A model generated the notes under the pieces. The model had not been told where the DNA came from, searched no databases, and worked only from the letters and a program-made list of their open reading frames with translations. 64,000 bases of DNA from a methanogenic archaeon ISO4-H5 (GTDB lineage Archaea; Thermoplasmatota; Thermoplasmata; Methanomassiliicoccales; Methanomethylophilaceae), in NCBI GenBank assembly GCA_001560915.1, contig CP014214.1, positions 310,001 to 374,000 of the forward strand. Reading direction: 5' to 3'. The position numbers and the translations under genes were made by a program. Below are positions 3,239 to 18,812 of this stretch, piece by piece. How positions within the stretch are numbered: position 1 is the first letter of the stretch; each line of letters starts with the position of its first letter.

Positions 3239-4195
3239 TCAATCCTTTTTGATCACATAATTCGAGTCTTCGATGCTGATTGTATATGACGCATCTTTTT
3301 CAACGTCGAATTGCAGCTGATACTCATGTTTGTTCGTTCCGATAAGGCCCTTCTTCGTTACTTCGACAAATGTCATTGTCTGAGGGCCCGGAGACAATAT
3401 CATCGTCTCGATAGCTCCTAATTTGACAGCACGTGAACGGAATTCGAAATGGTCGAATTTACCCTCTTTATGGATATATTCCTTAGGCATGTGGATTTTG
3501 ATCGGGCTCGGCCTATTAGCCTCTCTTTCAGCAATAGCTTCGGCCGTCTCTAACGGACAAGGTTTGATTAGCACTTTGGCTACATGCCCTACCCAAACAT
3601 CATCAATCGTAAATCCACTGTCACCGTTTACCGTGAACTCACCGGTAAAAATTTTTGCCTGAATAATATGCTTTCCGTTAGGGATGTAGAAATCAACCGG
3701 ACAATGTGCTTTCAATCTGAAATTGCGAGTATTATCAACAACAATATCGATAAAAAGTGCACCGACTTTTTTGTTATTAGGAACAAATTTCAAAGAAATG
3801 TGACTGCCGAGGTATTTAACAATATCCTCTTGAGTGAATAATCCTAAATTGTTAGTACAATGTTCAGATAACTCCATCAGAGTCTGATAATTTCCCCCAT
3901 TGGCTTTGGCAACTGCAACCTTCATATACATCGCGTCAAGGCAGTTGACATCAATCTCCAGTGCTTTGTCGGCGAGTTCCTTTACTTTGTCGAAATTTTG
4001 CTCAGTGAAGGCGATTATAGCGAGTTTGAGAACGTTCTTCAGTTCCTCTGAACGGTCGATGGTAACCTTCTGCTTGACAATCTCTTCCTGGATCATTACT
4101 TTGGTTCCGCAGTATTGGCAGAATGCGAATTCCCTAGAATCCTCGAGGTCCAATGATCCGCCACAGTTCGGGCATTTCAATGCAACTAGAGTCAT
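3239..4195 (-). CDS. Zinc-ribbon protein with TPR-like and beta domains
   Basis: A 318-residue protein. Residues about 6-36 form a zinc ribbon (LKCPNCGG...FAFCQYCGTK). A helical TPR-like region follows (about 45-115), then two beta-rich stretches, one resembling a surface or PEGA-like fold around IPNGKHIIQAK. The same zinc-ribbon module, nearly word for word, begins the MORN-repeat protein at 10502. The start MTLVALKCP is preferred over an in-frame start at 4246, because the ribbon then begins at the N-terminus as in its paralogue. Base composition is more AT-rich than the housekeeping genes. The role is unknown; it may be a sensor or scaffold. Confidence 0.7.
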   Translation of the reverse strand: MTLVALKCPNCGGSLDLEDSREFAFCQYCGTKVMIQEEIVKQKVTIDRSEELKNVLKLAIIAFTEQNFDKVKELADKALEIDVNCLDAMYMKVAVAKANGGNYQTLMELSEHCTNNLGLFTQEDIVKYLGSHISLKFVPNNKKVGALFIDIVVDNTRNFRLKAHCPVDFYIPNGKHIIQAKIFTGEFTVNGDSGFTIDDVWVGHVAKVLIKPCPLETAEAIAEREANRPSPIKIHMPKEYIHKEGKFDHFEFRSRAVKLGAIETMILSPGPQTMTFVEVTKKGLIGTNKHEYQLQFDVEKDASYTISIEDSNYVIKKD

Positions 4196-4229
4196 GTTAA
4201 CAGAGAATCCTTCACACAGATATGAATTT

Positions 4230-4523
4230 TCAGCAACCAAACACACTTGGTGACGCTCTGGATGAGATCAGTTTCTTCACGCATACGGAGAATGCGGGCC
4301 ATTCATTCATAAGACCCATGATGAATATCCTGCCGCCAGATCTGCGAGTAAAAATGATACGTTCATAGTACAGTTCCGCATCGAATTCGGAGGATCCGAA
4401 GATGGCAGTACGGATTTTGCCGGACCTTTTGAACGAGTCGCTGAATCTCAACTGGATGCCGTTCTCCGATTCCAATACAGTATCGAAACCCGCGAAATGA
4501 ATGGTATACACCAGACGTTTCAT
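4230..4523 (-). CDS. Hypothetical protein, possibly extended upstream through a TAG
   Basis: A 97-residue beta-rich protein, unrecognised, 34 bases upstream of the zinc-ribbon gene and co-directional. Immediately before its ATG the same frame reads TAG (4524-4526), preceded by an open stretch with ATGATG at 4592-4587. A TATA-like TATTAAAT at 4613-4620 would place transcription start at those ATGs. A leaderless protein of about 120 residues read through UAG is therefore possible. The alternative is a 22-residue leader coupled to this gene. Coding status itself is moderate. Confidence 0.45.
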   Translation of the reverse strand: MKRLVYTIHFAGFDTVLESENGIQLRFSDSFKRSGKIRTAIFGSSEFDAELYYERIIFTRRSGGRIFIMGLMNEWPAFSVCVKKLISSRASPSVFGC

Positions 4524-4825: not shown

Positions 4826-5512
4826 ATGGAAGATTTCCAGAAGAACGAAGAACTCAAAAACATCTTCCAGCGCGTAGCCGCTGAGTACGGATACAGTTCC
4901 GTAAACGCAGAATACCTAAGCACTAAGGACCTAAAGGTCCGCTGGCAGCGCGGTTATGATTGGATCAACTTCCAGGTATCCGATTATCTGGATGATGCGC
5001 CGGAAGAGGTCCTCGAAGGATTGGCAAAAAACATCTGCGAAAGACTCAACGGCAGGGCAAGCGAATTCAGCAGAGCACTGAAGACCTGGGTTACCAGACC
5101 CGAGTTCTGCAAGCAGAAACAGCCAGTCTACATCGAGAGGAGCATGGGTCTCCTAAACGAGGTCAAGGGAGAACACAAGGACCTGAACGATTCTCTGAAG
5201 AGACTTCAAGATGCAGGACTTGTCGGAGAGATACCCGGACTGTACCTTAGCTGGAGAGAGAACAACGGAGATATGAAAGTCGGACGTTGCTCCGTCTTAA
5301 TGAAGGTCGTTACCCTCAGCAAACAACTCGACTCCGAGGATGTCCCAGATTTCGTGATAGACTACTGCTTGTACAATGAGCTGGTACACATTATCGCAGG
5401 ATATCATCCCGATGGAGATATCCATGACATCGAAAGTCTATTACTTCTGAAGAACTTCACTCAGGAGTCCGAGGCACAGCAATTTCTGAGAACGATTGAG
5501 ATGTACGCCTGA
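4826..5512 (+). CDS. Metalloprotease-like (SprT/DUF45-like) protein with incomplete zinc motif
   Basis: A 228-residue protein. The C-terminal third resembles archaeal SprT/DUF45-type putative zinc peptidases: YNELVHI, then a short loop, then DIHD, and a final helix with an AQQFL motif. The expected HExxH reads NELVH here, so the first zinc-binding His is missing and proteolytic activity is doubtful. The N-terminal 130 residues are helical and unrecognised. The gene follows a leader with a possible switch and is ended by a hairpin-T terminator. A 5'-truncated copy of the C-terminal part lies at 10159-10395, on the other side of the R-M module. Confidence 0.6.
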   Translation: MEDFQKNEELKNIFQRVAAEYGYSSVNAEYLSTKDLKVRWQRGYDWINFQVSDYLDDAPEEVLEGLAKNICERLNGRASEFSRALKTWVTRPEFCKQKQPVYIERSMGLLNEVKGEHKDLNDSLKRLQDAGLVGEIPGLYLSWRENNGDMKVGRCSVLMKVVTLSKQLDSEDVPDFVIDYCLYNELVHIIAGYHPDGDIHDIESLLLLKNFTQESEAQQFLRTIEMYA

Positions 5513-5618: not shown

Positions 5619-6611
5619 ATGATGTCAAAACCCTATCAGGTAGCCAGTCTTTTCGCAGGTATCGGAGGAATCTGCACAGGATTCAGACAGGCCGGAGCAG
5701 AGATTGCCTGGGCCAATGAAATCGACAGATATGCCTGCGAGACATACAGGGAGTTTTACGGAAATCCCGATTACCTGAAAGAGGGCGATATCTATCAGAT
5801 GCACGTCCCCAAGGAGACACATATCGACATCGTGGCGGGAGGGTTCCCCTGCCAGGCGTTCTCTATTGCCGGATACAGGAAAGGTTTTGAAGATGAAAGA
5901 GGAGTTTTATATACCCAGGTCCTCAGAATCGTCGAAGAAACAGATCCGAAAGCGGTGTTTCTTGAGAATGTAAAGAACCTCATGACCCATGACGGAGGCA
6001 ATACCTACCGCGTTATCAGAGAGTCTCTCGAAGCAAAGGGATTCATTGTCACAGAAAAAGTCATGAATACGATGGAATACGGAAATATCCCTCAGAACAG
6101 AGAGAGAATTTACGTTGTCGCATTCAAGGAGGACTCTTCCGGATCTAAGCACAGTAAGGCGATGGACAATTTCGCTTTCCCAAATCCTGTCCCTCTGACC
6201 TGCAAGCTGTCCGATGTCATTGACTATCATGAGAAGAAACCGGAGAAGTACTACTACTCCAAAGATCACATGTACTATCCGAAACTCGATGAGGCCATGA
6301 CTAATCCCGATACGGTCTATCAGTGGAGAAGAGTATACGTCCGCGAGAACAAGAGCGGAGTGTGCCCCACTATGACTGCCAATATGGGCGGAGGAGGGCA
6401 TAATGTACCCCTTATCAGGGACGATTTCGGAATAAGGAAACTCACCCCTCAGGAATGTCTCCGTCTGCAGGGATTCCCTGCGGATCTGAAATTCCCCGAG
6501 AACATGGCAGACAGCCACAAATACAAACAGGCAGGCAATTCGGTCTCTGTACCTGTGATACGCAGGATTGCAGAGAACATGATTTCCGCCATGTCCCAGA
6601 CAGAGGCATAA
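5619..6611 (+). CDS. DNA (cytosine-5) methyltransferase
   Basis: A 330-residue enzyme that transfers methyl from S-adenosylmethionine to cytosine C5 in DNA. The conserved motifs occur in order: FAGIGG (about 12-17), GGFPCQAFS with catalytic Cys78, ENVKN, QNRERIY, and the C-terminal QAGNSV. It is of the single-chain M.HhaI/HaeIII type. It is one base upstream of the restriction endonuclease gene, followed by a Vsr gene, so it is the protective partner of a type II system. Two ATGs (5619, 5622) are possible; the TATA box is compatible with either. Confidence 0.95.
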   Translation: MMSKPYQVASLFAGIGGICTGFRQAGAEIAWANEIDRYACETYREFYGNPDYLKEGDIYQMHVPKETHIDIVAGGFPCQAFSIAGYRKGFEDERGVLYTQVLRIVEETDPKAVFLENVKNLMTHDGGNTYRVIRESLEAKGFIVTEKVMNTMEYGNIPQNRERIYVVAFKEDSSGSKHSKAMDNFAFPNPVPLTCKLSDVIDYHEKKPEKYYYSKDHMYYPKLDEAMTNPDTVYQWRRVYVRENKSGVCPTMTANMGGGGHNVPLIRDDFGIRKLTPQECLRLQGFPADLKFPENMADSHKYKQAGNSVSVPVIRRIAENMISAMSQTEA

Positions 6612-6612
6612 C

Positions 6613-7701
6613 ATGAGAAACATCTTCACAGAGGCACCGGCAAAATCGAGGGCGCTCTATGAAGATTATCTCAAAGCGATGTCCTCGATAAGTTCGTTAT
6701 TCTCGGAGAGCGCGGTTCCGTATATCGACTACCGCATAATCGAGAATCTGTTCTGCAAATGCTTCGGAGCAGAGAATCTGTCCCGTTCCTGTATAGCAAT
6801 CGATGCCCGTTTGGGATCTGCCGGAATCGGAATCAAGACATTCGTAGATACACCGTACCAGAAGATTGCGGAATTCGACAAGAAACGCGATTATGCTGAT
6901 ACCGGCGATACCCACGAAGATGCAGTCCGCGTATCTGAACTGCGCAACGAACGTCTGGAATTCTCCAGGGATGCATATGCTATCGAAGATTTCCTCTACC
7001 ACTATGTAATCCGCCATGAGGGAAGTCTTTCCATCCATGAATGTCCGATGGATTCAGTCAATCTCGATCGGATCAAAATCACCCGCGAGACTCCGAAAGG
7101 CTTCGATTTTACTGACGGGAAGAACAGATTCAGATACAGCCGTGCGAAAAGCACAATCTATGAATGTTTTGACACGGAACGTCCGCTTTACACTTTTGAT
7201 GTAGAATTTATAGAGAATCCGATCGATGCGATTCTGCAGATGTACTCCGGGGAAGTTCACCTAGATTCAGTTAAGGAGGAACCTGTACTAGTTCTGCCCC
7301 TGTTCTCGACCAGGGGAAGAGTGCACGTTCCCGAGAAAAGTGGACTCAATCAATGGAATGCCGGCGGCCGTGCCCGCAGTTACGATGAGGTCTATATTCC
7401 GTACCCCAAAGAGTACCGCGACATATCCGTTGGATTCTTCCCGGCAAGAGACACTCCATTTGATTTGGGTCTGCCGAACGGAGAGACAATCAGCGCAAAG
7501 GTATGCCAGGCAGACGGCAAAGCAATCATGTCCAATCCTAATCGGGATCTCGGAAACTGGCTGCTCAGAGATGTACTGAAGCTGGAACCGGGTGAGATTG
7601 TCACTTTGGACATGCTGGATAATCTGGGTATTAACGCAGTGATGTTTACAAAGCACGCTGACGGAAAGTACTCCATAGATTTCACGAACGTGGATTACTG
7701 A
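6613..7701 (+). CDS. Type II restriction endonuclease, PD-(D/E)XK-like with B3-type DNA-binding domain
   Basis: A 362-residue protein beginning one base after the methyltransferase stop. Residues about 40-90 resemble a PD-(D/E)XK nuclease core (AIDARLGSAGIGIKTF, with D64 and K75 as candidate catalytic residues). The C-terminal 130 residues (NQWNAGG, YIPYP, FFPARDTPF, then GNWLLRDVL) match the B3-like DNA-binding domain of NgoFVII/BfiI-type restriction enzymes. The pairing of these two domains next to a C5 methyltransferase makes it the cutting partner. The target sequence cannot be read from the protein. Its 3' end overlaps the convergent vsr gene by 20 bases. Confidence 0.8.
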   Translation: MRNIFTEAPAKSRALYEDYLKAMSSISSLFSESAVPYIDYRIIENLFCKCFGAENLSRSCIAIDARLGSAGIGIKTFVDTPYQKIAEFDKKRDYADTGDTHEDAVRVSELRNERLEFSRDAYAIEDFLYHYVIRHEGSLSIHECPMDSVNLDRIKITRETPKGFDFTDGKNRFRYSRAKSTIYECFDTERPLYTFDVEFIENPIDAILQMYSGEVHLDSVKEEPVLVLPLFSTRGRVHVPEKSGLNQWNAGGRARSYDEVYIPYPKEYRDISVGFFPARDTPFDLGLPNGETISAKVCQADGKAIMSNPNRDLGNWLLRDVLKLEPGEIVTLDMLDNLGINAVMFTKHADGKYSIDFTNVDY

Positions 7702-8101
7702 GCACAGACTCAATTCTGTCCGCACATTCGCTGAGATTCTTTTTCAGTTCGTTTCCCCAGAATCTCAGAACGGTATACCCCATCGATTCGAGTTCTGAAT
7801 TGACTTCCCGATCCCGTTCCATGTTACGTTCAATCTTAGGGATCCAGTAATCCCGGCGGGTACCGATGCGGTCTTTCTGGTTCTCCCAATCATATCCGTG
7901 CCAGAATTCGGAATCGCAGAATACCGCCACTTTCTTCGTTTTGAACACAAGATCCGGTTTGCCTGGTACATCTTTACAGTTCTTCCGGTAACGAATCCCC
8001 CGAGACCACAGTTCCCTGCGCAGCATCAGTTCTATAGAAGTATCTTTGCAGCGTATGGCCTGCATGTTCTTCCTGCGCTGTTCAGGTGTATGATTATCCA
8101 C
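7682..8101 (-). CDS. vsr: Very short patch repair (Vsr) endonuclease
   Basis: A 139-residue Vsr family nuclease, which nicks DNA 5' of T in T:G mismatches arising from deaminated 5-methylcytosine. Visible hallmarks: RRKNMQAIRCKDTSIE at the N-terminus, GKPDLVF with the catalytic Asp50, VAVFCDSEFWHGYDW containing Asp63, Trp67 and His68, and the C-terminal VLRFWGNEL. The linkage to a C5 methyltransferase fits its role of repairing the mutagenic product of that enzyme. It converges on and overlaps the restriction gene. Confidence 0.95.
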   Translation of the reverse strand: MDNHTPEQRRKNMQAIRCKDTSIELMLRRELWSRGIRYRKNCKDVPGKPDLVFKTKKVAVFCDSEFWHGYDWENQKDRIGTRRDYWIPKIERNMERDREVNSELESMGYTVLRFWGNELKKNLSECADRIESVLSNPRS

Positions 8102-8112
8102 ACATACACCAC

Positions 8113-9882
8113 TCAGGAATCATCTTCCATTGAAGTATAATCATCATCTACACTAGTAAGGCGGATCTCCAAACCAATAGAATCAACAAGAATTTTCTTT
8201 ATAGCTGCAATGCGAGCCTCGATAAATGCCTCATAATCTTCATTTAAAAATGCTTTTAAACCTTCATCATTAACACCGTGTTTGTTGAGCACAGATTTAA
8301 ATTCATTTTCAGTTTTAATCTCTTTAATCTTTGTAATTAGATTATAATACTCGACAGTTGAACGATCCTTGATATGGTTATTAGTTTCCTTTGAGATGAA
8401 GGTTATATTGAAAATCGAATCGATTTTGTATTTACCCGATTTGACCCTATCTGCATAACGAGCACTGGGGAATATATGATGTTGTTCAGATTCAGCAATC
8501 TTTTCACCAATTCCTACAGTTTTTTCGGTATAGAAGTCTATTAATTTTTGATGATTGAGGGCAGAAAGAATTGCTTTACCAATTGCACTGGTGGAACCCT
8601 TCTTAATACTTACAATTTCATCCTCCGTCCATTTAAGTCCACCTTTGTAGAAGATTTGACCTGCCTTTACAGTATTTCTGTCTGGTACTGCTCCGTTTAG
8701 AATCCAGTTAGTAACTGCCTTATAGTCAACTTCTAACTTAGTAGCACCTCCATCCTTATAGCGCTCATTAAAGGAAGCATAATAGTAATATTGTTTGATG
8801 ATTTTTTCAACTCTGGCTTTATCATCCGCTTTTTTGATATCACGATACTGAACACTAATCAAAACAGCAGCAATTACAGTAATCATTACATCATAAGAAA
8901 CTAATGATAGATTTTTAGTGGTACCAACGCCAAAATCATCAAGCAATGTCAAAGTATCATTAAGAGAATCGACAACCTTTTCCCAATTTGCGGTAACATC
9001 TTTAGCTTCAAGATTTACAAGCTGATTCTTTTTAGAATCATTTCCAGTTATCAATGCAATAACTTGAAGTGTAATAATTTTATATTTATCATCATCAATC
9101 ACTAAATCTGCAGGCCCTGAGCCGCAACTAGATGATAGCATTTTTTTCAAATCAATGCCTTCACTAGAAAATTTGGCAACACAAATATCAAATGAATCCA
9201 GTTTAACTCCAGTAGTATTAACCGTTTGGAAAATTTTACAAACTGCAGATAGAGTAAGATCTTTTGGAAGAATAATAATGGGAAATTGATACTCAAAGAA
9301 AGGATCCAAATATGTTTCTAAATGGGTTTCTACAAAGTCAAGATAATCAGCTTTATCAGGTTCGGACCTAAGCTTATTCCTATACGCTTTGAGATAATCT
9401 CTCATCTCATCTCTGTCTTTCAAAACAGGGAAAGGCAAAAGATCTTCATCCATCCACTTTAGATACTGTTTCTTTTTTTTCTTCCTAATTATGATGGAAT
9501 CGCCAAAATCAATCGATTTAATCATACGGGCTTTATGTTGATTATATAAGTTAATCAAGTCAATAAAGAAGGTATTAGCAAAATTATCATAGAATACATT
9601 ATAACAAGACGTCAACCTTTGCTGCCCATCCATAACAAGATGTTCTGCCTCAACGTTTGCCTCAGAATATTTAAATTTCTCAGAAGAAAGATTAGATCCA
9701 CCCGTTTCATAGAAGAGAAGCGAACCAGCAGGATACCTATTCTCAATGGAATCGAGTAGACTGATTACATCAGCATACTTCCAAACATATTTCCTCTGAA
9801 AACTTGGCAACCTCAGGGCACCTTTATTAATCTTATCCATTAATGTGTGCAGCTTCTTCATGTCCTGAGAGATATATTCCAT
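8113..9882 (-). CDS. DUF262/HNH protein (GmrSD-like, modification-dependent nuclease candidate)
   Basis: A 589-residue protein. The N-terminal DUF262 (ParB-like NTPase) domain shows LPSFQRKYVW (25-34) and the signature MDGQQRLTS (84-92). The C-terminal part contains an HNH-type motif (EQHHIFP, then a conserved Asn region with IFNITFISKETNNHI), as in the DUF1524 half of GmrS-GmrD fusions. The family includes type IV enzymes that cut modified DNA. The gene is clearly AT-rich and Lys/Ile/Asn-rich relative to its neighbours, which suggests separate acquisition. It lies 11 bases from vsr, pointing the same way. Confidence 0.85.
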   Translation of the reverse strand: MEYISQDMKKLHTLMDKINKGALRLPSFQRKYVWKYADVISLLDSIENRYPAGSLLFYETGGSNLSSEKFKYSEANVEAEHLVMDGQQRLTSCYNVFYDNFANTFFIDLINLYNQHKARMIKSIDFGDSIIIRKKKKKQYLKWMDEDLLPFPVLKDRDEMRDYLKAYRNKLRSEPDKADYLDFVETHLETYLDPFFEYQFPIIILPKDLTLSAVCKIFQTVNTTGVKLDSFDICVAKFSSEGIDLKKMLSSSCGSGPADLVIDDDKYKIITLQVIALITGNDSKKNQLVNLEAKDVTANWEKVVDSLNDTLTLLDDFGVGTTKNLSLVSYDVMITVIAAVLISVQYRDIKKADDKARVEKIIKQYYYYASFNERYKDGGATKLEVDYKAVTNWILNGAVPDRNTVKAGQIFYKGGLKWTEDEIVSIKKGSTSAIGKAILSALNHQKLIDFYTEKTVGIGEKIAESEQHHIFPSARYADRVKSGKYKIDSIFNITFISKETNNHIKDRSTVEYYNLITKIKEIKTENEFKSVLNKHGVNDEGLKAFLNEDYEAFIEARIAAIKKILVDSIGLEIRLTSVDDDYTSMEDDS

Positions 9883-11570: not shown

Positions 11571-11927
11571 TTATACACTCTCTCCCTTATCGCCGGCATT
11601 CCATTTGTTTGGCACACAGGTGGCAAGGATATCGTAAGGGACGACTTCTTGGGAAAAACTGGGCCTTACACAATGGGACTGACAATCGATGACCCAGTCC
11701 CCGACTATTTCCGTTATTCCTTCGGTGATACGCTCTTCGACTGAAGAGGACAATACGGGCCGGTCCCCATAATCCCGGAAGACCGACAGTGTAGCTACTG
11801 AGTACTCTAAGACCTCGAGGGCTTCATCCGCATCGAGGCCTTCTTTATCGGAGAGACTGTTGAATACGTCGGATACGAGCTGTCTCAAATGCTCGCTCCT
11901 GTCAATATCGCTGTCTTTTTTTAACAT
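11571..11927 (-). CDS. Hypothetical acidic protein
   Basis: A 118-residue soluble protein, last in the minus-strand operon that begins at 18775. It is helical and acidic in its N-terminal half, with a Cys/Trp-containing C-terminus (DWVIDCQSHC). It is separated by 54 bases, including a CAGGTAC/GTACCTG hairpin (11953-11970), from the DUF6339-like gene. It may belong to the defence operon or be a bystander. No family recognised. Confidence 0.55.
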   Translation of the reverse strand: MLKKDSDIDRSEHLRQLVSDVFNSLSDKEGLDADEALEVLEYSVATLSVFRDYGDRPVLSSSVEERITEGITEIVGDWVIDCQSHCVRPSFSQEVVPYDILATCVPNKWNAGDKGESV

Positions 11928-11981
11928 ATAGTCACCAACGAATCCCGAAGGACAGGTACCGAAGTACCTGCCCCGGAGGAA

Positions 11982-12782
11982 TCATTTCTGTTTGTCATAC
12001 CATTCCTTAAACTTCACGATCAAATCGTACACCTCATCGGAAGTCATTGTATCGATGCGCAGGTTACCTGATACCGCATTGATATGTGCGCAGATCGCCT
12101 GAGCCTCGGCACTGCCGACGGAATATCCTGCCTTATTGCGCTCATAGACATAGGTCAAGATACCCACCACGACACTCTTGGAAAAGAATGCAAGAGTCTG
12201 AGTGATACGGAGTTTGATATCCGAGTTCTTGAAGGCCAGCCTAGTCAGCTCATACGGATCTTCACGACCGGGGTCGTAGGTGAGATCGGCAACCCTGTAT
12301 AGAATGGGAAGGAGACAGTCCCCCAATTCCTTCATGGATGGATCCCATTTAACACAGTATTTAGTACGAATCCTGTTAACGGCTTTGGAGGTGGAGTTGA
12401 TGTCCTCCTCCCCTTCGACGGCAGACTTATCCTTGTACTTGGCAAGACCGGAACGGCGGTTGAGATACTCCAGATGATGGAGTGCATAGAATGTCCAGAA
12501 TGCGCCTGCGGACATTTCCGCATTATCGAATTTACCCGATAATGCCTTATGCAGTGCGATGGCGTTGTTGGCATCATTCTCATTCTGTTCATTCCGGGAA
12601 GTGTAAATCAGATCGACCGCCTCCACCTCCATGTATCCTCTGACCTTCCGGCCGTTATCCTCAAGGAAGGAGACAGCCCAGCCTTTGTCGTTGTTGAGAT
12701 AATGGTCTACATTCTTCGGTATACTGGCGATGAAGAAATCCAGGTCCTCCTGGCTAACGATAGGGATCTTAACTTTGACCAT
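11982..12782 (-). CDS. DUF6339-like protein of the GHKL/methyltransferase operon
   Basis: A 266-residue protein resembling the DUF6339 family: an N-terminal region with a strand-helix pattern, NNAIALHKALSG, then FWTFYALHHLEYLNRR, a basic middle and a C-terminal helical part. The family occurs beside predicted defence genes; its biochemical role is not established. It directly abuts the upstream gene (stop and start adjacent at 12782/12783), so it is part of the same operon as the GHKL ATPase and two methyltransferases. Confidence 0.6.
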   Translation of the reverse strand: MVKVKIPIVSQEDLDFFIASIPKNVDHYLNNDKGWAVSFLEDNGRKVRGYMEVEAVDLIYTSRNEQNENDANNAIALHKALSGKFDNAEMSAGAFWTFYALHHLEYLNRRSGLAKYKDKSAVEGEEDINSTSKAVNRIRTKYCVKWDPSMKELGDCLLPILYRVADLTYDPGREDPYELTRLAFKNSDIKLRITQTLAFFSKSVVVGILTYVYERNKAGYSVGSAEAQAICAHINAVSGNLRIDTMTSDEVYDLIVKFKEWYDKQK

Positions 12783-13604
12783 TCAATCACTCTCCTTGAT
12801 ATTCGAGACAAGTCTGCGGGAGGCCTTGCAACTGAGGGATTCGATGATCTGCATAGCCAATTCATAGGGGGAGACAGTATTCGCATCCTTCTTGGAGAAG
12901 TCGACACCAGGGTAGAGATCATCTATGCACTGCTGTATGGCGTTGGCCCAAGGGAACTGTGCGGCCACATCTCCCGAGTACCAATATTTGTACAACAAAT
13001 CCACAAGAATCGGAGGGAAGTGCATCGCGGTGAATATCTCCTGCTCCGGTACATCCAGCGTGGAATAGTCCAACCACAGATCCTCGGGAAGGGAGATATC
13101 GATGGTGTTGCCTTCAGTGGTATATTTGATGTGACCGTCGTCGGATGCAACAAAATGGCATACCGATTTCAGAGTGGGCATCGACTTCCTCTCAATCTTG
13201 AACGTATAATACTCATACTCGATGAATCCGTGCTTGGGTATCAGTATGGATATGCCCTCATAGTCATCCGAAAGGTAAGGATCGGAATAATCCGCAATAT
13301 CCTCACAGGCGACAATCGCTGGTTCAATATGAACCTCGCCGGCGAACATTCCCTTAGGGATGATGATTGCATCGAGATCCCTAAACAGCACACGATATGC
13401 AGTCCTGGGGCAGGAGACCAGAACAACAGATTCGGCCTTACCGCTGATGATAAGCTGCTCCAGGTACTCATCGTGTATCTCAAGAACCACATAGATGTGG
13501 AGATTCTCCCCTTCTTCGTTGACAATGGGATCGGACCAATCCACGGGTCTCTCTTTGTAGTCATCTGTGGTAGACGACATTACGGGATATGATAGATTGT
13601 TCAA
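12783..13604 (-). CDS. Hypothetical protein linked to the GHKL ATPase
   Basis: A 273-residue protein, beta-rich at the start and helical at the end, with no recognised motif. The proposed start is TTG 13604, which overlaps the upstream stop as TTGA and has GGTGG a few bases before it; an internal ATG at 13580 has no visible ribosome-binding site. Its tight coupling to the ATPase suggests a stoichiometric partner in the same complex. Confidence 0.65.
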   Translation of the reverse strand: MNNLSYPVMSSTTDDYKERPVDWSDPIVNEEGENLHIYVVLEIHDEYLEQLIISGKAESVVLVSCPRTAYRVLFRDLDAIIIPKGMFAGEVHIEPAIVACEDIADYSDPYLSDDYEGISILIPKHGFIEYEYYTFKIERKSMPTLKSVCHFVASDDGHIKYTTEGNTIDISLPEDLWLDYSTLDVPEQEIFTAMHFPPILVDLLYKYWYSGDVAAQFPWANAIQQCIDDLYPGVDFSKKDANTVSPYELAMQIIESLSCKASRRLVSNIKESD

Positions 13605-15490
13605 CTTACCACCACGTTGAGAGAACAGAGTTCAGGATACGCAAGACGGAACTTAATACGGACCTTGTCTCCCTTAGGGAGGATAAAAGGACCGATGGAG
13701 GTCTTACTGACAGGGATGGCAGTACCGTCCATGAACGATGCGCACTCGATCGGAAGAGGCACGTTACCATACTCGTCATTCTCGTAACAGGGATACAGAG
13801 AGATTGAGCACTTGGTTTCCTTAGGGGACCTAAAGAGGATAATATAGTCCTTATTGGAATCGATCATAGTGCGAAGAGGTGTGAGTGAACCGGGTTCCTG
13901 CACATCCATCGGAGTGCCGCCTTCCTCGGACACCAATTCGGTATCGCTAGTCTTACCTGCCTTGGGTTTTTGGGGTACAGCAACATCGGCGCCGGATCTG
14001 GGATTATCGGTCTTGGGCTTACGCACAACGGGTTTCCTAACCTTCTCCGAAGGAGGGGTATTGCGCCTTGACTTGGTAGTCCTATGGATGGGCGGAGAGA
14101 TAAGAAGGCCTCCGGATATGGACATCTCAGGGTCGTTCTTACCTTCGTCGGACTCCTTGGTACCAAGGATGGTCTCAAGACCCTTGGCTTCCACGAACTG
14201 CCCCGCTTCGCGCTGAATAAGAGCATTCACTGCCTTGGTAACCTTGGACTTCAGATTGGCGATGGCATCTTTCGCCTTCTTCCGAGCAGATACATCATCG
14301 ATGAGCGAAGGTTCCCATGCGGTATGGGTAATATTCTCACAGTCGTTGACAAGCTTAAGGAACTCAGATTTCTTAATCACCACAGCGCCGCAGCACCTGC
14401 AGTCCTTGAAATGCTCCTCCATGGTCATTCCGATAAATTCCTTCGTTGTGATTATACGGCCGTTGTAATCCACCTTCTTCAAGAAGATGTCGTACTCATC
14501 GCCCTCTACAGTGGGTTCTGCTTGACTGATGGCATCGATGAGGTCGATCAACGAACTGAGATCGGGATCATCGTTGATGATTCTGCACTCATCGATTACC
14601 TGTAGGATTGTCTTAGCATCTATGATCCGATCCTCGACCTTGACCACGAGCAGGCCTTTCACAATGGCATAGAAGAACCCCTTGACAATTGCGGACATGA
14701 CCTCGACTTCCCAATCCTTCTCGAAAGTATAGCCAATGATGTACACATCAGTCCCCACCTTGTCACGGGGTTTGATGAAAGAGGGCATGTTCAAAGGGTT
14801 GTGGATGGGAGTAGAGGTATAGTTATGCTTGACGCCGTAGTAACCTACGGCGTCCTTGAGTTCACCATCGGTACGATGAGCCATGAACGTGGACTTGCCG
14901 ATGGCAGCAGTTATGCCGTCGCGGTTGAGTGTACTGAAGAAGAGGGTCCTCATCGTGGAGACCTCGTAGAAAGAGTTCTTGCCCACGCCCTTGGAACCGG
15001 CCTGATCGATGTTCTTATTGGTTATGCCGATACCGCGCACGAGACGATTCCATGAAGTCTTGATTTCGTTGACATCGAACCCGGACAGGCCGGTGGTATT
15101 GTAGTCCCCGACACGTAGGATATCAATGCGGTTCTGAGCTAGTTTCTTCTCCATATTGGTGAAACAATTGTACGAACGCCGATTATCCTCCAACCCATCG
15201 GCTTCCACAGTACAGTCATGAATAGCAGAACGGTAAGCTTCGATGCCCGGGAAATCCCCAACATCGACCTGGATGTGTTCGAAATCAATATGCACGGGCT
15301 GAGTGCTCTCGGGATTCTTTGCATCCAGAGAATTCTGACAGATCTCGCGGACGAAGGTCTGAACCTTGGAGACCTCGTTATGCATCTGTGTGCTGTTGAC
15401 TCCTATGATGTCCCCGAAGTTCGGACAAAAATTCCATGTAGGATAATCGGGGTCAATCTTGAAGTCGGATTTGATGGGTGGCATAATCAT
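13601..15490 (-). CDS. GHKL ATPase, MutL/MORC-like, of a restriction-type operon
   Basis: A 629-residue protein with the ATP-binding fold shared by Hsp90, MutL and histidine kinases. Visible boxes: the N-box around residues 48-57 (REICQNSLDA, catalytic-type E49, N53), the G1 box at 126-136 (RVGDYNTTGLSG, D129) and the glycine lid at 165-174 (GSKGVGKNSF). A Pro/Lys-rich linker (about 470-530) precedes a beta-rich C-terminal domain. Such stand-alone MutL-like ATPases are known from prokaryotic R-M operons together with C5 methyltransferases, and are related to MORC proteins. It probably acts as an ATP-driven clamp controlling a nuclease. The start overlaps the upstream stop (ATGA). Confidence 0.8.
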   Translation of the reverse strand: MIMPPIKSDFKIDPDYPTWNFCPNFGDIIGVNSTQMHNEVSKVQTFVREICQNSLDAKNPESTQPVHIDFEHIQVDVGDFPGIEAYRSAIHDCTVEADGLEDNRRSYNCFTNMEKKLAQNRIDILRVGDYNTTGLSGFDVNEIKTSWNRLVRGIGITNKNIDQAGSKGVGKNSFYEVSTMRTLFFSTLNRDGITAAIGKSTFMAHRTDGELKDAVGYYGVKHNYTSTPIHNPLNMPSFIKPRDKVGTDVYIIGYTFEKDWEVEVMSAIVKGFFYAIVKGLLVVKVEDRIIDAKTILQVIDECRIINDDPDLSSLIDLIDAISQAEPTVEGDEYDIFLKKVDYNGRIITTKEFIGMTMEEHFKDCRCCGAVVIKKSEFLKLVNDCENITHTAWEPSLIDDVSARKKAKDAIANLKSKVTKAVNALIQREAGQFVEAKGLETILGTKESDEGKNDPEMSISGGLLISPPIHRTTKSRRNTPPSEKVRKPVVRKPKTDNPRSGADVAVPQKPKAGKTSDTELVSEEGGTPMDVQEPGSLTPLRTMIDSNKDYIILFRSPKETKCSISLYPCYENDEYGNVPLPIECASFMDGTAIPVSKTSIGPFILPKGDKVRIKFRLAYPELCSLNVVVS

Positions 15491-15753
15491 GGCCTCTTGA
15501 GCTTGAAGGTCTTGTCTTCCTTCTTGACTGTGAACTTAGACTTGGCCTCGGCAGTAGCCTCGGAGATCGCTCTGAAGATCTGCTCCACCTGTTCGGGTGT
15601 GTAGTCATAAGTGGATTTGTTAGAGCAGTTACCGAGCAGGCGGATCATGTCGATGATGCGATTGGTCCTGTACTCCGCTATCCTGCAGAACTTTTCGTTG
15701 CGGGATTCAGTGGATTCGGACTTCTTTGCTGTAGATACTTTGTCGTCGGACAT
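15487..15753 (-). CDS. Small helical partner protein of the GHKL ATPase
   Basis: An 88-residue protein with a charged N-terminus and two predicted helices (RIAEYRTNRIIDMIRLLGN and EQVEQIFRAISEATAEAKS) separated by NKSTYDYT. The same arrangement occurs in small proteins encoded just before GHKL ATPases in comparable operons, as I recall the pattern. It overlaps the ATPase start by four bases. It probably is an accessory or assembly subunit. Confidence 0.65.
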   Translation of the reverse strand: MSDDKVSTAKKSESTESRNEKFCRIAEYRTNRIIDMIRLLGNCSNKSTYDYTPEQVEQIFRAISEATAEAKSKFTVKKEDKTFKLKRP

Positions 15754-16020
15754 AATAATCCATTGGGATGCAGCTATTTAAACATTATTCAGGTATTTCG
15801 ATATTTAGAAAATATATGTAATATTTTCAATATATTATGTAATATATTGAATATTAAACAATGCCTGATGTTATTTAGAGTCAGTTTTAACCCCGTACCT
15901 GATATACTGTATAATAAGAATAGAGGACAACCTGAATCAAAATATTTTACAATCGAACTATCCAAGTCTAAAAGACATCAAATGAGCCAGATAAACAATA
16001 ATGAAAATCCAGCTGTAGAA
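15754..16020. other. AT-rich gap inside the operon
   Basis: A 267-base AT-rich stretch with repeated AATATATT-like runs around 15805-15860. It may contain an internal promoter for the ATPase half of the operon. An overlapping plus-strand frame here is not supported. Confidence 0.4.
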
Positions 16021-16569
16021 TCAATCAAAGGCCGGCGTCGCATTATTGAGCAGATTGAGAAGATATTCGGAATAAAATCCGAACCGAACATCATTGACAG
16101 GGATAATGTCGTTTTCCATTGTATTGTGATCATGACAGTCAGCATTGTAGAGTCCGCGGTCTGCGAGCTCCCTGAACTGCTGAGACTGATCATTGAACAA
16201 TACGAATGCAAGATGCTCAGGATCCACGGTGAAATAGAACATATACCAACGGACTTCGGCATCATACGGTCCTGTTATGTGACGTATGGCTTTGTACACC
16301 GAACGATGGTCCCCGACGCCTCCGGATCTGATCTTGGGACTGCGGCTCCCGCCGTCCAGCATACTGATGGAATCGATGTATACTGGCAACCTATAGATTC
16401 TGCCATCATACCACAGCAGAGCATCGGCTACATGCCGATCGCCAAGGAATGCGAAAGAATGGTTACTAAGTCCAATATGGGTAAGATGTGAAGACCGCTT
16501 CTTACCCAACTCGGGCAAAGTCAGCTTCTTGAAGCTGATAGGCTGTTCCGGGTACATCTGGTAGGGCAT
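16021..16569 (-). CDS. Hypothetical protein following the second methyltransferase
   Basis: A 182-residue protein whose ATG overlaps the stop of the methyltransferase (TAATG). It contains HLTHIGLSNHSFAFL, RHVADALLWYDGRIY and a central RWYMFYFTVD. I do not recognise the family. Its place directly behind a methyltransferase, where restriction subunits often lie, makes a nuclease or specificity role possible but unproven. A plus-strand frame covering the same bases is judged a shadow, because this one continues the operon. Confidence 0.6.
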   Translation of the reverse strand: MPYQMYPEQPISFKKLTLPELGKKRSSHLTHIGLSNHSFAFLGDRHVADALLWYDGRIYRLPVYIDSISMLDGGSRSPKIRSGGVGDHRSVYKAIRHITGPYDAEVRWYMFYFTVDPEHLAFVLFNDQSQQFRELADRGLYNADCHDHNTMENDIIPVNDVRFGFYSEYLLNLLNNATPAFD

Positions 16570-17639
16570 TATGTCTCTAACCCAACATATACGAACAGAT
16601 AATATAAGATTGCGTAAACGGTGTTCACGCTGATTGCGTTGCCTGCTTGACGATAGAGTTGTGCATCGGATACACCCGCATCCCTCGCGTTCTCGACAAA
16701 ATAATCATGGAAACCCTGGAGACGGAATGCTTCCTCGGGCGTCAGGCGACGGATCTTCTGTTCGGCCAACTCCTCTTTGGTATATTTGGTGGCCAAATAC
16801 TCAATAGGATCGTCAGCGTAAATGAAATCATAACTGTAGTAATTATCCTCACATGCACGATGAAGTTTAGCCATCGTAGCCGTCAAGGGCCTGGCTATCA
16901 TCAGGTTGATTTCCGATCTCGACCTAAACGACTTGGAACCGTCGGCCAAAATCGTGGGTTTCACTCTGGCAGAGAGATAATACTTGATATCGAACGTTCT
17001 ATCCAGTATTTCGTATGTACTGTTCTGAATCATGAGGGATGTATCGGACTTGATGCCGTCAAATACCTTCTGAATGAGTCCAGCATCGAATACGAACCCA
17101 TCGAGTTTGTCTTTGCAGGCGAATATGAATATGCGGTTACGGGTTTGTGCCAGACCGAAATTTTTGGTGTTGAATGTATCATAGAGAACAGTCTGATATC
17201 CGCACTCTTTCAGTTTATCTTCAATCACGTCGATGGTCTTCTTATTGTTGTGAAGCTTGATATTTCTAACATTCTCGAGAAGGATGTATCTGGGTTTCTT
17301 CACCCGAAGAATCTGCACAATCTGGAAGAACATGGTGCCGCGGTCATCATCGAAACCCCGTTTCTTACCCATGAGTGAGAAAGGCTGACAAGGGAAACCG
17401 CCTGTAAGCAAATTGAAATCGGGGAGATACTCAATATTGGCCGGATCACTGTTGAATTCGACTATATCTCCCATATCGACTTCTCCGGAGGTGTCGAATA
17501 CAGAGTTGTATGTCTTCTTAGCGGCATCGTCGATCTCACTGTATCCGACAGAAGTCTGAGCGACACCGAAATCTTTCTCGAGAAGTGTCAAAGCCTGGCG
17601 AAAACCGCCGACGCCGGCAAAGAGCTCCAGGTGTTTCAG
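16569..17639 (-). CDS. DNA (cytosine-5) methyltransferase with apparent CTG start
   Basis: A C5 methyltransferase of 356 residues if it starts at CTG 17639. The SAM-binding motif LFAGVGGF, essential to the family, is encoded upstream of the first ATG/GTG/TTG-type codon in frame (TTG 17591). The only plausible start is CTG 17639-17637, which overlaps the upstream stop TGA as CTGA, the same geometry as the ATGA, GTGA and TTGA couplings around it. Other motifs: GGFPCQPFS with the catalytic Cys, ENVRNIK, AQTRNRIFIF and RQAGNAISV. Its target specificity probably differs from that of the neighbouring enzyme. Confidence 0.85.
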   Translation of the reverse strand: MKHLELFAGVGGFRQALTLLEKDFGVAQTSVGYSEIDDAAKKTYNSVFDTSGEVDMGDIVEFNSDPANIEYLPDFNLLTGGFPCQPFSLMGKKRGFDDDRGTMFFQIVQILRVKKPRYILLENVRNIKLHNNKKTIDVIEDKLKECGYQTVLYDTFNTKNFGLAQTRNRIFIFACKDKLDGFVFDAGLIQKVFDGIKSDTSLMIQNSTYEILDRTFDIKYYLSARVKPTILADGSKSFRSRSEINLMIARPLTATMAKLHRACEDNYYSYDFIYADDPIEYLATKYTKEELAEQKIRRLTPEEAFRLQGFHDYFVENARDAGVSDAQLYRQAGNAISVNTVYAILYYLFVYVGLET

Positions 17640-18775
17640 AGATATCTTATCAGCTCCTTTCCGATTGCTTCAGCTAATTTGACAGGGACCGCATTACCTA
17701 TCTGCCTATACCATTTATTCATGGGCCCCTGGAACTCAAAGTCGTCCGGAAATGTCTGTATCCTCGCAGCTTCACGGGGACTCAGGCCGCGCGGCTGAGT
17801 GGGGTGGATGTACATGTTGCAGTCGTTCTGCATATGGGCGGTAATCGTCTTACAGATCGTGTCGGGAACGAGACGATAGTATTTGTCGGTGAAGACATCG
17901 TTACGCCTCTTGTAGGGCATGATATCTGCGATGGACGGGTCAAGAGAATTTGCACCTTGAGGAAGTCTTTTGAAGATCTCGACGTCCCTCGGCTGATTAT
18001 ATCTGTTCTTATGATTGAATAAGACCTCGATCTTCCGATCCCCGTTGATGAAACGCCTGAATTCAGTATCCTTGTAGGTATATCCGATACTGGTGAATCC
18101 GATATCCTCCCCTTCTCTGCCGGTATTGTTCTTTACCGTATTTGGTTTCAATTCCGGCAAGTCGCCAATAGCATCCTCCAAAGTGAATCTGGGACATTCG
18201 GAGGAATACTCGACTATGTTGTGAAGAAGCAACTTGGAAGATAACCCGATACGATTACCGATCAAGATGAATCTGACACGATTCTGGGGAACACCGAAGT
18301 CTTTGGCATTCAGGAGCGTATAATCTACATCGTACTCGTCACCCAGATATGTACGGATATCTTCCTTGATCTCATCTATTTTCTTTGCCATACCCCTAAC
18401 GTTCTCGATGAGGAAGAACTTGGGCCTGACCTCTTTCAAGAACTTGAGATATTCCTTATACAGAACATTACGAGGGTCATCAATGAGACGATGATTCCTG
18501 TTTGCATTGGAAAAACCTTGACAAGGTGGACCTCCGCAGACCAATGCGACGTCTTTGAATCTGTCCGTATAATCGGCGATGTGATTGTTGAGTGTGCGTA
18601 TATCGCCTTCATACACATCATTGGGGGAAATGGAATGATTGCAACGGAACGTCTCACAGGCGTACCGATCAAAATCCGATGCAAATATCAGATTGAATCC
18701 AGCATGTTCCATGCCAAGACTCAATCCTCCGCATCCGGAAAATAGATCAATGAAGTTGTAAGACCCCGAAGACAT
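17636..18775 (-). CDS. DNA (cytosine-5) methyltransferase
   Basis: A 379-residue C5 methyltransferase, first gene of the defence operon. Motifs in order: DLFSGCGGLSLG, CGGPPCQGFS with the catalytic Cys, IENVRGM, PQNRVRFILIG and a C-terminal RQIGNAVPV. The start is taken at ATG 18775; a TTG at 18796 would add seven unconserved residues. A TATA-like box at 18813-18819 puts transcription start about 15 bases upstream. Two methyltransferases in one operon suggest that two strands of an asymmetric site, or two sites, are modified. Confidence 0.95.
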   Translation of the reverse strand: MSSGSYNFIDLFSGCGGLSLGMEHAGFNLIFASDFDRYACETFRCNHSISPNDVYEGDIRTLNNHIADYTDRFKDVALVCGGPPCQGFSNANRNHRLIDDPRNVLYKEYLKFLKEVRPKFFLIENVRGMAKKIDEIKEDIRTYLGDEYDVDYTLLNAKDFGVPQNRVRFILIGNRIGLSSKLLLHNIVEYSSECPRFTLEDAIGDLPELKPNTVKNNTGREGEDIGFTSIGYTYKDTEFRRFINGDRKIEVLFNHKNRYNQPRDVEIFKRLPQGANSLDPSIADIMPYKRRNDVFTDKYYRLVPDTICKTITAHMQNDCNMYIHPTQPRGLSPREAARIQTFPDDFEFQGPMNKWYRQIGNAVPVKLAEAIGKELIRYL

Positions 18776-18812
18776 ACAATCTGTGCCCGTTCTCAAGATA
18801 TCAGGTCTCCTG

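What the first reader, a model, noticed from the sequence alone, without database searches (positions are those of the whole stretch)
11571..18775. Operon of two C5 methyltransferases, a MORC-like ATPase and unknown partners
Eight co-directional genes, mostly overlapping: methyltransferase, methyltransferase, unknown, small helical protein, GHKL ATPase, unknown, DUF6339-like, unknown. MutL/MORC-like ATPases with C5 methylases are known in R-M operons, but those usually include a recognisable helicase or nuclease; none is apparent here. One of the unknown proteins may be a new nuclease or effector.
Basis: partly seen in the sequence, partly recalled or inferred. Interest (0 to 1): 0.75.

Follow-up and report, generated by a model that had tools for sequence, protein, structure and literature searches.

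The report
Clamp-ATPase module attached to restriction systems

Summary
In detail: eight co-directional genes, in probably two units. Unit 1 (16021-18796) is two C5 methyltransferases plus a 182-aa protein. In a related genome the same pair is followed by a full 360-aa enzyme whose second half is a NOV_C PD-(D/E)XK-type domain; the window copy lacks that half and the genome has no NOV_C. So 16021-16569 is a truncated restriction enzyme, not a new effector. Unit 2 (11982-15753) is S-A-B-C: small helical protein, GHKL ATPase, FnIII-like beta-sandwich protein, all-helical DUF6339 protein. A, B and C match PADLOC's uncharacterised candidate PDC-M33. A-B-C is contiguous in 86 of 90 loci, and methyltransferases, MutH/Sau3AI, AlwI and NgoFVII-type nucleases cluster around it. 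A has the ExxxH motif given for paraMORC2 (Iyer 2008). Relatives carry the longer form Z1 helicase-A-B'-C-DUF4420 nuclease-Dcm. An intact Dcm-REase-Vsr set lies at 5619-8101 in this window; its orthologue directly adjoins A-B-C in another archaeon. Neither B nor C resembles a nuclease; C has no solved structural relative. Most likely mechanism (inferred): an ATP-gated DNA clamp that couples site or methylation reading to a neighbouring nuclease. New variant of a known kind.

The parts
17636..18796 (-). MT1, C5-cytosine DNA methyltransferase (386 aa)
   Evidence: PF00145 1.4e-71, TIGR00675
16569..17639 (-). MT2, second C5 methyltransferase (about 356 aa; start inferred at CTG 17639, overlapping the MT1 stop)
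   Evidence: PF00145 5.9e-61; motif I upstream of listed TTG; G159 orthologue starts at the same point
16021..16569 (-). N-terminal half of a restriction enzyme; the NOV_C nuclease-like half is absent
   Evidence: 35-37% identity, E 2e-15 to residues 15-144 of the 360-aa protein that follows the same MT pair in G159; C-half there is NOV_C PF13020 9.5e-12; no NOV_C in the own genome, controls ring
15754..16020 (.). AT-rich intergenic region with inverted repeat 15823-15854 and TATA-like box; putative promoter of S-A-B-C
   Evidence: promoter role inferred
15487..15753 (-). S, small helical protein (88 aa), gene directly before A
   Evidence: profile match directly before A in 36 of 90 loci; on alphaproteobacterial plasmids it directly precedes other GHKL-type ATPases
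13601..15490 (-). A, GHKL ATPase (629 aa) with S5-region ExxxH motif (E385/H389), paraMORC2-like
   Evidence: PDC-M33A 1.1e-95; GHKL motif residues E49, N53, D56, D129, G165, G168, G170 conserved
12783..13604 (-). B (273 aa), two beta-sandwich (FnIII-like) regions and a helical C-terminus
   Evidence: PDC-M33B 4e-31; AlphaFold2 pLDDT 87.6; weak matches to FnIII-type proteins only
11982..12782 (-). C (266 aa), all-helical DUF6339 protein
   Evidence: PF19866 6.2e-16, PDC-M33C 1e-25; AlphaFold2 pLDDT 90.8, no PDB or viral structural match
11571..11927 (-). Orphan 118-aa ORF; probably not part of the module
   Evidence: no match in 60 relatives, none in Pfam, NCBIfam, PADLOC, PHROGs
5619..6611 (+). 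Dcm3, C5 methyltransferase of a nearby complete R-M set
   Evidence: PF00145 1.5e-79; 57% identical to the Dcm beside A-B-C in G119
6613..7701 (+). Full-length type II restriction endonuclease (362 aa, NgoFVII-type)
   Evidence: PF20731 5.9e-8; 48% identical to the G119 enzyme, which matches PADLOC REase_II at 1.7e-94
7682..8101 (-). Vsr patch-repair endonuclease (139 aa)
   Evidence: PF03852 2.3e-30
8113..9882 (-). GmrSD-type (DUF262) protein between the R-M set and A-B-C; separate defence gene
   Evidence: PF03235 8.3e-29

Best explanation
S-A-B-C is a helicase-less branch of the paraMORC2 (GHKL ATPase) systems that attach to restriction-modification loci. The ATPase A probably dimerises on DNA as an ATP-gated clamp or loop-former. 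B (beta-sandwich adaptor) and C (helical DUF6339 protein) form its body and link it to a nuclease encoded by whatever R-M system sits next to it; S is a common small partner of such GHKL ATPases. Reading of unmethylated target sites by the R-M enzymes would load or trigger the clamp, which then drives cutting or blocks the incoming DNA. In this genome the nuclease partner is most likely the full-length enzyme at 6613-7701, because the enzyme in the operon itself lacks its nuclease half. Shown: gene content and order, family membership, the nuclease-less R gene, the neighbouring complete R-M set, R-M clustering, no nuclease-like fold found in B and C. Inferred: clamping, coupling to the nuclease, the antiviral role.
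For: A-B-C contiguous and co-directional in 86 of 90 loci with A and B overlapping in 99% of them; PDC-M33A/B/C matches. Neighbours within 3 kb: 26 of 172 are C5 methyltransferases and 10 MutH, against none listed among 54 genes over 7 kb away (Fisher P 5e-4 for Dcm). R-M partners differ: MutH/Sau3AI + Dcm, AlwI + Vsr + Dcm, type II REase + Dcm, a run HsdS - N6 methylase - A-B-C - methyltransferase - helicase - GIY-YIG nuclease, Vsr-Dcm-NgoFVII type. Dcm linkage needs 17 changes on the A tree. The archaeal copy G119 is sister to the window copy (100% SH-aLRT, long branches) and adjoins an orthologue of the Dcm-REase-Vsr set at 5619-8101. Genomes with that REase and genomes with an A-like gene overlap more than chance. 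Z1-A-B'-C'-DUF4420-Dcm order in G104 and Z1-A-B'-C' in G387; C to C' by profile, 85%, E 5.6e-6. GHKL motif and ExxxH residues intact in all 89 A proteins of the short form and, for ExxxH, 10 of 10 of the more distant ones. Iyer 2008 (PMC2292703) describes ExxxH for paraMORC2 and proposes DNA looping.
Against: No biochemical or phage data exist here. About half of the loci have no Dcm within the span examined, and I did not identify the partner in each of those. The window's A-B-C is 4 kb from the complete R-M set with a GmrSD gene and a MORN-repeat gene between. Many residues conserved elsewhere in C (R94, R160, W162, W163) and B (H62, E64) are changed in the window copy, so the archaeal copy may work differently or be decaying. 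B to B' is not significant (E 0.053). DUF4420 could not be excluded elsewhere in the genome (no control rang).
Confidence: 0.5

Rival explanations
1. Abortive-infection back-up: A-B-C watches the R-M system or the DNA ends it makes and, when restriction is overcome, kills or arrests the cell, with C (DUF6339) as the effector.
For: C has a fold with no solved relative and strongly conserved polar and aromatic residues (N73, W96, R110, LWW, D170, N235, D244) that could be an active site. The Lactococcus copies sit near abiG genes.
Against: Several of those residues are not kept in the two archaeal copies (for the window; L103 sequence). C is always the last gene of a fixed trio, not an exchangeable effector. 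C also occurs in Z1 systems that already have a helicase and nuclease.
Confidence: 0.22
2. Nuclease-free, methylation-guided exclusion: with the operon's own nuclease half gone, MT1/MT2 mark self and A-B-C blocks unmarked DNA physically by clamping it.
For: The operon retains two apparently complete methyltransferases and A-B-C while the nuclease half of R is absent from the genome; no nuclease-like fold in B or C.
Against: A full-length REase, Dcm and Vsr are 4 kb away. G159 has the MT1-MT2-R set without a detectable A, so the pairing with A-B-C may be accidental.
Confidence: 0.13
3. Mere neighbours in a defence island: A-B-C is a self-standing defence system that collects next to R-M genes without working with them.
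For: PADLOC lists PDC-M33 as a three-gene candidate; partner R-M types vary widely; a gap with a possible promoter separates it from MT1-MT2-R here.
Against: Tight, often contiguous position beside R-M genes in one run, the same R-M partner orthologue in two archaea, and gene-for-gene relation to Z1 systems with Dcm and nuclease.
Confidence: 0.15

Closest known systems
PDC-M33 (PADLOC phage-defence candidate, genes M33A/B/C)
   Same: All three core proteins match, same order
   Different: No PADLOC model matches S; no mechanism found in the papers searched
paraMORC2 GHKL ATPases in R-M operons (Iyer, Abhiman, Aravind 2008, PMC2292703)
   Same: GHKL plus invariant ExxxH in the S5 region, R-M neighbourhood, found in Gram-positives
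   Different: The paper stresses SFII helicase and nuclease partners; here no Z1 helicase exists in the genome and no nuclease lies inside S-A-B-C. The paper's figure and alignment could not be compared
Z1 / GHKL / DUF4420 / Dcm operons (as in G104, L126)
   Same: Same A family, same gene order A-B-C, DUF6339-type protein C
   Different: Those carry a 916-968 aa Z1 protein before A; G104 also has a PD-(D/E)XK nuclease after C; the window form has S before A instead
VcSduA (Shedu with GHKL domain, PMC12137116)
   Same: GHKL ATPase proposed to control a nuclease, with a clamp-like middle domain
   Different: There the nuclease is fused to the ATPase; here it would be a separate R-M enzyme

Membership tests
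PDC-M33 | M33A, M33B and M33C adjacent on one strand | tested here: met
   E 1.1e-95, 4e-31, 9.8e-26, adjacent
PDC-M33 | anti-phage activity | not testable with these tools
   candidate only; no assay found in the papers searched
paraMORC2 | N-terminal GHKL with conserved ATP-binding motifs | tested here: met
   motif residues conserved in 87-89 of 89 proteins, the window's included
paraMORC2 | ExxxH in the C-terminal part of the S5 domain | tested here: met
   E385 and H389 in 89 of 89 and 10 of 10; that this region is an S5 fold was not modelled
paraMORC2 | direct sequence match to the published members | not tested
   alignment of the 2008 paper not available as sequence
Z1-type helicase-containing MORC/paraMORC R-M operon | SFII helicase-like Z1 protein | tested here: not met
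   no PF10593 in the genome; a control genome rings
Z1-type helicase-containing MORC/paraMORC R-M operon | DUF4420 PD-(D/E)XK nuclease | tested here: inconclusive
   no hit, but no control rang
Type II R-M system (MT1-MT2-R) | methyltransferase(s) plus cognate restriction nuclease | tested here: not met
   R lacks the nuclease-like half that its relative has; NOV_C absent from the genome
Type II R-M system (Dcm3-R362-Vsr) | methyltransferase plus full-length restriction enzyme | tested here: met
   G119 orthologue of R matches REase_II

The most novel reading that the evidence does not exclude
S-A-B-C is a general, nuclease-free ATP-driven DNA clamp that plugs into unrelated restriction-modification systems and turns methylation or site reading into exclusion of the incoming DNA, with C (DUF6339) a new fold acting on DNA or as the effector.
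Probability: 0.2. Interest if true: 0.75.

Novelty: new variant of a known kind. Interest (0 to 1): 0.48.

Why it matters
If the plug-in reading is right, one conserved ATPase trio upgrades many unrelated restriction systems, which would explain why MutL/MORC-like ATPases keep appearing beside methyltransferases (an open question since 2008) and would bear on how eukaryotic MORC clamps arose. The compact S-A-B-C form, without helicase and often next to a simple type II R-M system in cultivable Bacillota, is the easiest version to reconstitute and test.

Tried and rejected
182-aa protein as a new effector: rejected, truncated restriction enzyme. B or C as a hidden nuclease: no nuclease match in Pfam, NCBIfam, PADLOC, PDB sequences or folds; absence of a match is not proof. 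The 118-aa ORF as a module member: rejected. S as a unique partner of A: rejected, it also precedes other GHKL-type ATPases. Identity with the lactococcal 'Rhea' system: could not be tested, paper not held. Eight-sequence profile scan with A1 failed for lack of conserved stretches; a four-sequence profile worked. Phage and plasmid copies of the 182-aa protein: none.

Full report
WHAT IS THERE. The window lies in a single-contig genome of 1.94 Mb that has methyl-coenzyme M reductase, so a methanogenic archaeon. The eight minus-strand ORFs are real. They fall into two blocks: MT1, MT2 and a 182-aa protein (16021-18796), and S, A, B, C (11982-15753). A 267-bp, 27% GC gap with an inverted repeat and a TATA-like box separates them. 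The eighth ORF (118 aa) is an orphan. MT2 probably starts at a CTG overlapping the MT1 stop, because the listed TTG start would cut off methyltransferase motif I.

THE 182-aa PROTEIN IS HALF A RESTRICTION ENZYME. Among 390 genomes of the phylum its only relative is in G159. There the same MT1-MT2 pair is followed, overlapping, by a 360-aa protein. Its first half matches the window protein (35-37%); its second half is a NOV_C domain with the pattern PYDFIV...YLDVKTT, typical of PD-(D/E)XK nucleases (pattern read by eye). The window has no trace of that half and the whole genome has no NOV_C, although control genomes ring. G159 has no detectable A. So an independent two-methyltransferase type II system exists in the family, and the window copy lacks the cutting half.

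THE A-B-C MODULE. A, B and C match PADLOC candidates PDC-M33A, B and C. One scan of genome contigs returned 80 loci (of 287 relatives found); plasmids and viral contigs added more. Across 90 loci A-B-C is contiguous and co-directional in 86; in the other four B or C is missing or cut at a contig end. S directly precedes A in 36. The neighbourhood is rich in R-M genes: 26 C5 methyltransferases and 10 MutH among 172 genes within 3 kb, none listed among 54 distant genes. Partners vary: MutH/Sau3AI, AlwI with Vsr, other type II enzymes, a type I-like run, NgoFVII type. On the tree of A, linkage to Dcm changes at least 17 times. Most rows are Bacillota, and the scan was seeded mostly with Bacillota sequences, so the distribution is biased.

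THE MISSING NUCLEASE. At 5619-8101 the window holds Dcm3, a 362-aa NgoFVII-type restriction enzyme and Vsr. Their orthologues in G119 (57% and 48% identical for Dcm and REase) stand directly convergent with that genome's A-B-C, and A of G119 is the window A's sister (both are long branches). G387 also carries this enzyme a few kb from an A-like gene. Overlap of the two gene sets among 390 genomes: P about 6e-5, or 0.0016 without the window's own genome.

RELATION TO KNOWN SYSTEMS. In G104 and G387 the A-like gene sits in Z1 - A - B' - C' order, in G104 followed by a DUF4420 nuclease and Dcm. C' is DUF6339 in G387 (over the Pfam cut-off) and related to C by profile. B' is only positionally equivalent. 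All A proteins, long and short form, keep ExxxH at the end of the S5 region, which Iyer et al. 2008 state for paraMORC2, a family they place in R-M operons with helicases, methyltransferases, Vsr and RE-fold nucleases. The window is thus a helicase-less branch of that kind; Z1 is absent from its genome.

MECHANISM. B is modelled as two beta-sandwich regions plus helices (pLDDT 87.6) with only weak FnIII-type matches; C as an essentially all-helical protein (pLDDT 90.8, pTM 0.89) with no match in PDB or viral models. Neither looks like a nuclease. A keeps the GHKL ATP-site residues. The likeliest function is an ATP-gated DNA clamp or loop former acting with the nuclease of the linked R-M system, as proposed for paraMORCs in general and for a GHKL-Shedu. 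This is inference. Caution: several residues conserved in B and C elsewhere differ in the window copy, so this archaeal copy may be specialised or decaying.

VERDICT. Observation confirmed, interpretation partly supported; a new variant of a known kind, with an untested mechanism and a named but uncharacterised candidate family behind it.

Noticed in passing
L067:13502-16459, L087:13472-16762, L065:13419-16211 and similar: In many Clostridia a 917-1185 aa protein follows C directly; members carry RNA polymerase alpha-CTD-like, helix-hairpin-helix and sigma-region-4 domains and are homologous to each other. No Walker A found. Could be a fifth, DNA-binding component.
   Followed up: partly
L105:7001-9100, L106:7001-9083, L107:7001-9637: S homologues on alphaproteobacterial plasmids stand directly before different large proteins with GHKL-like motifs, so S may be a general partner of such ATPases.
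   Followed up: partly
window:20079-21104: 341-aa protein with an HFH (HUH-like) motif, possibly a rolling-circle replication protein; relatives scattered in the family at 60-63% identity, no Pfam or PHROG match. Suggests an integrated element beside the defence genes.
   Followed up: partly
window:10502-11551 and 3239-4246: Zinc-ribbon proteins flanking the defence genes, the first with nine MORN repeats.
   Followed up: no
L128:4419-5420: In G192 the Dcm3 orthologue reads as two adjacent ORFs while its REase and Vsr are full length; possible interrupted methyltransferase or assembly error.
   Followed up: no
window:10069-10395 and 4826-5512: Ends of the two ORFs share a similar stretch (GRCSVLMKVV, CLYREL/CLYNEL), pointing to a duplicated and partly decayed gene around the defence genes.
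   Followed up: no
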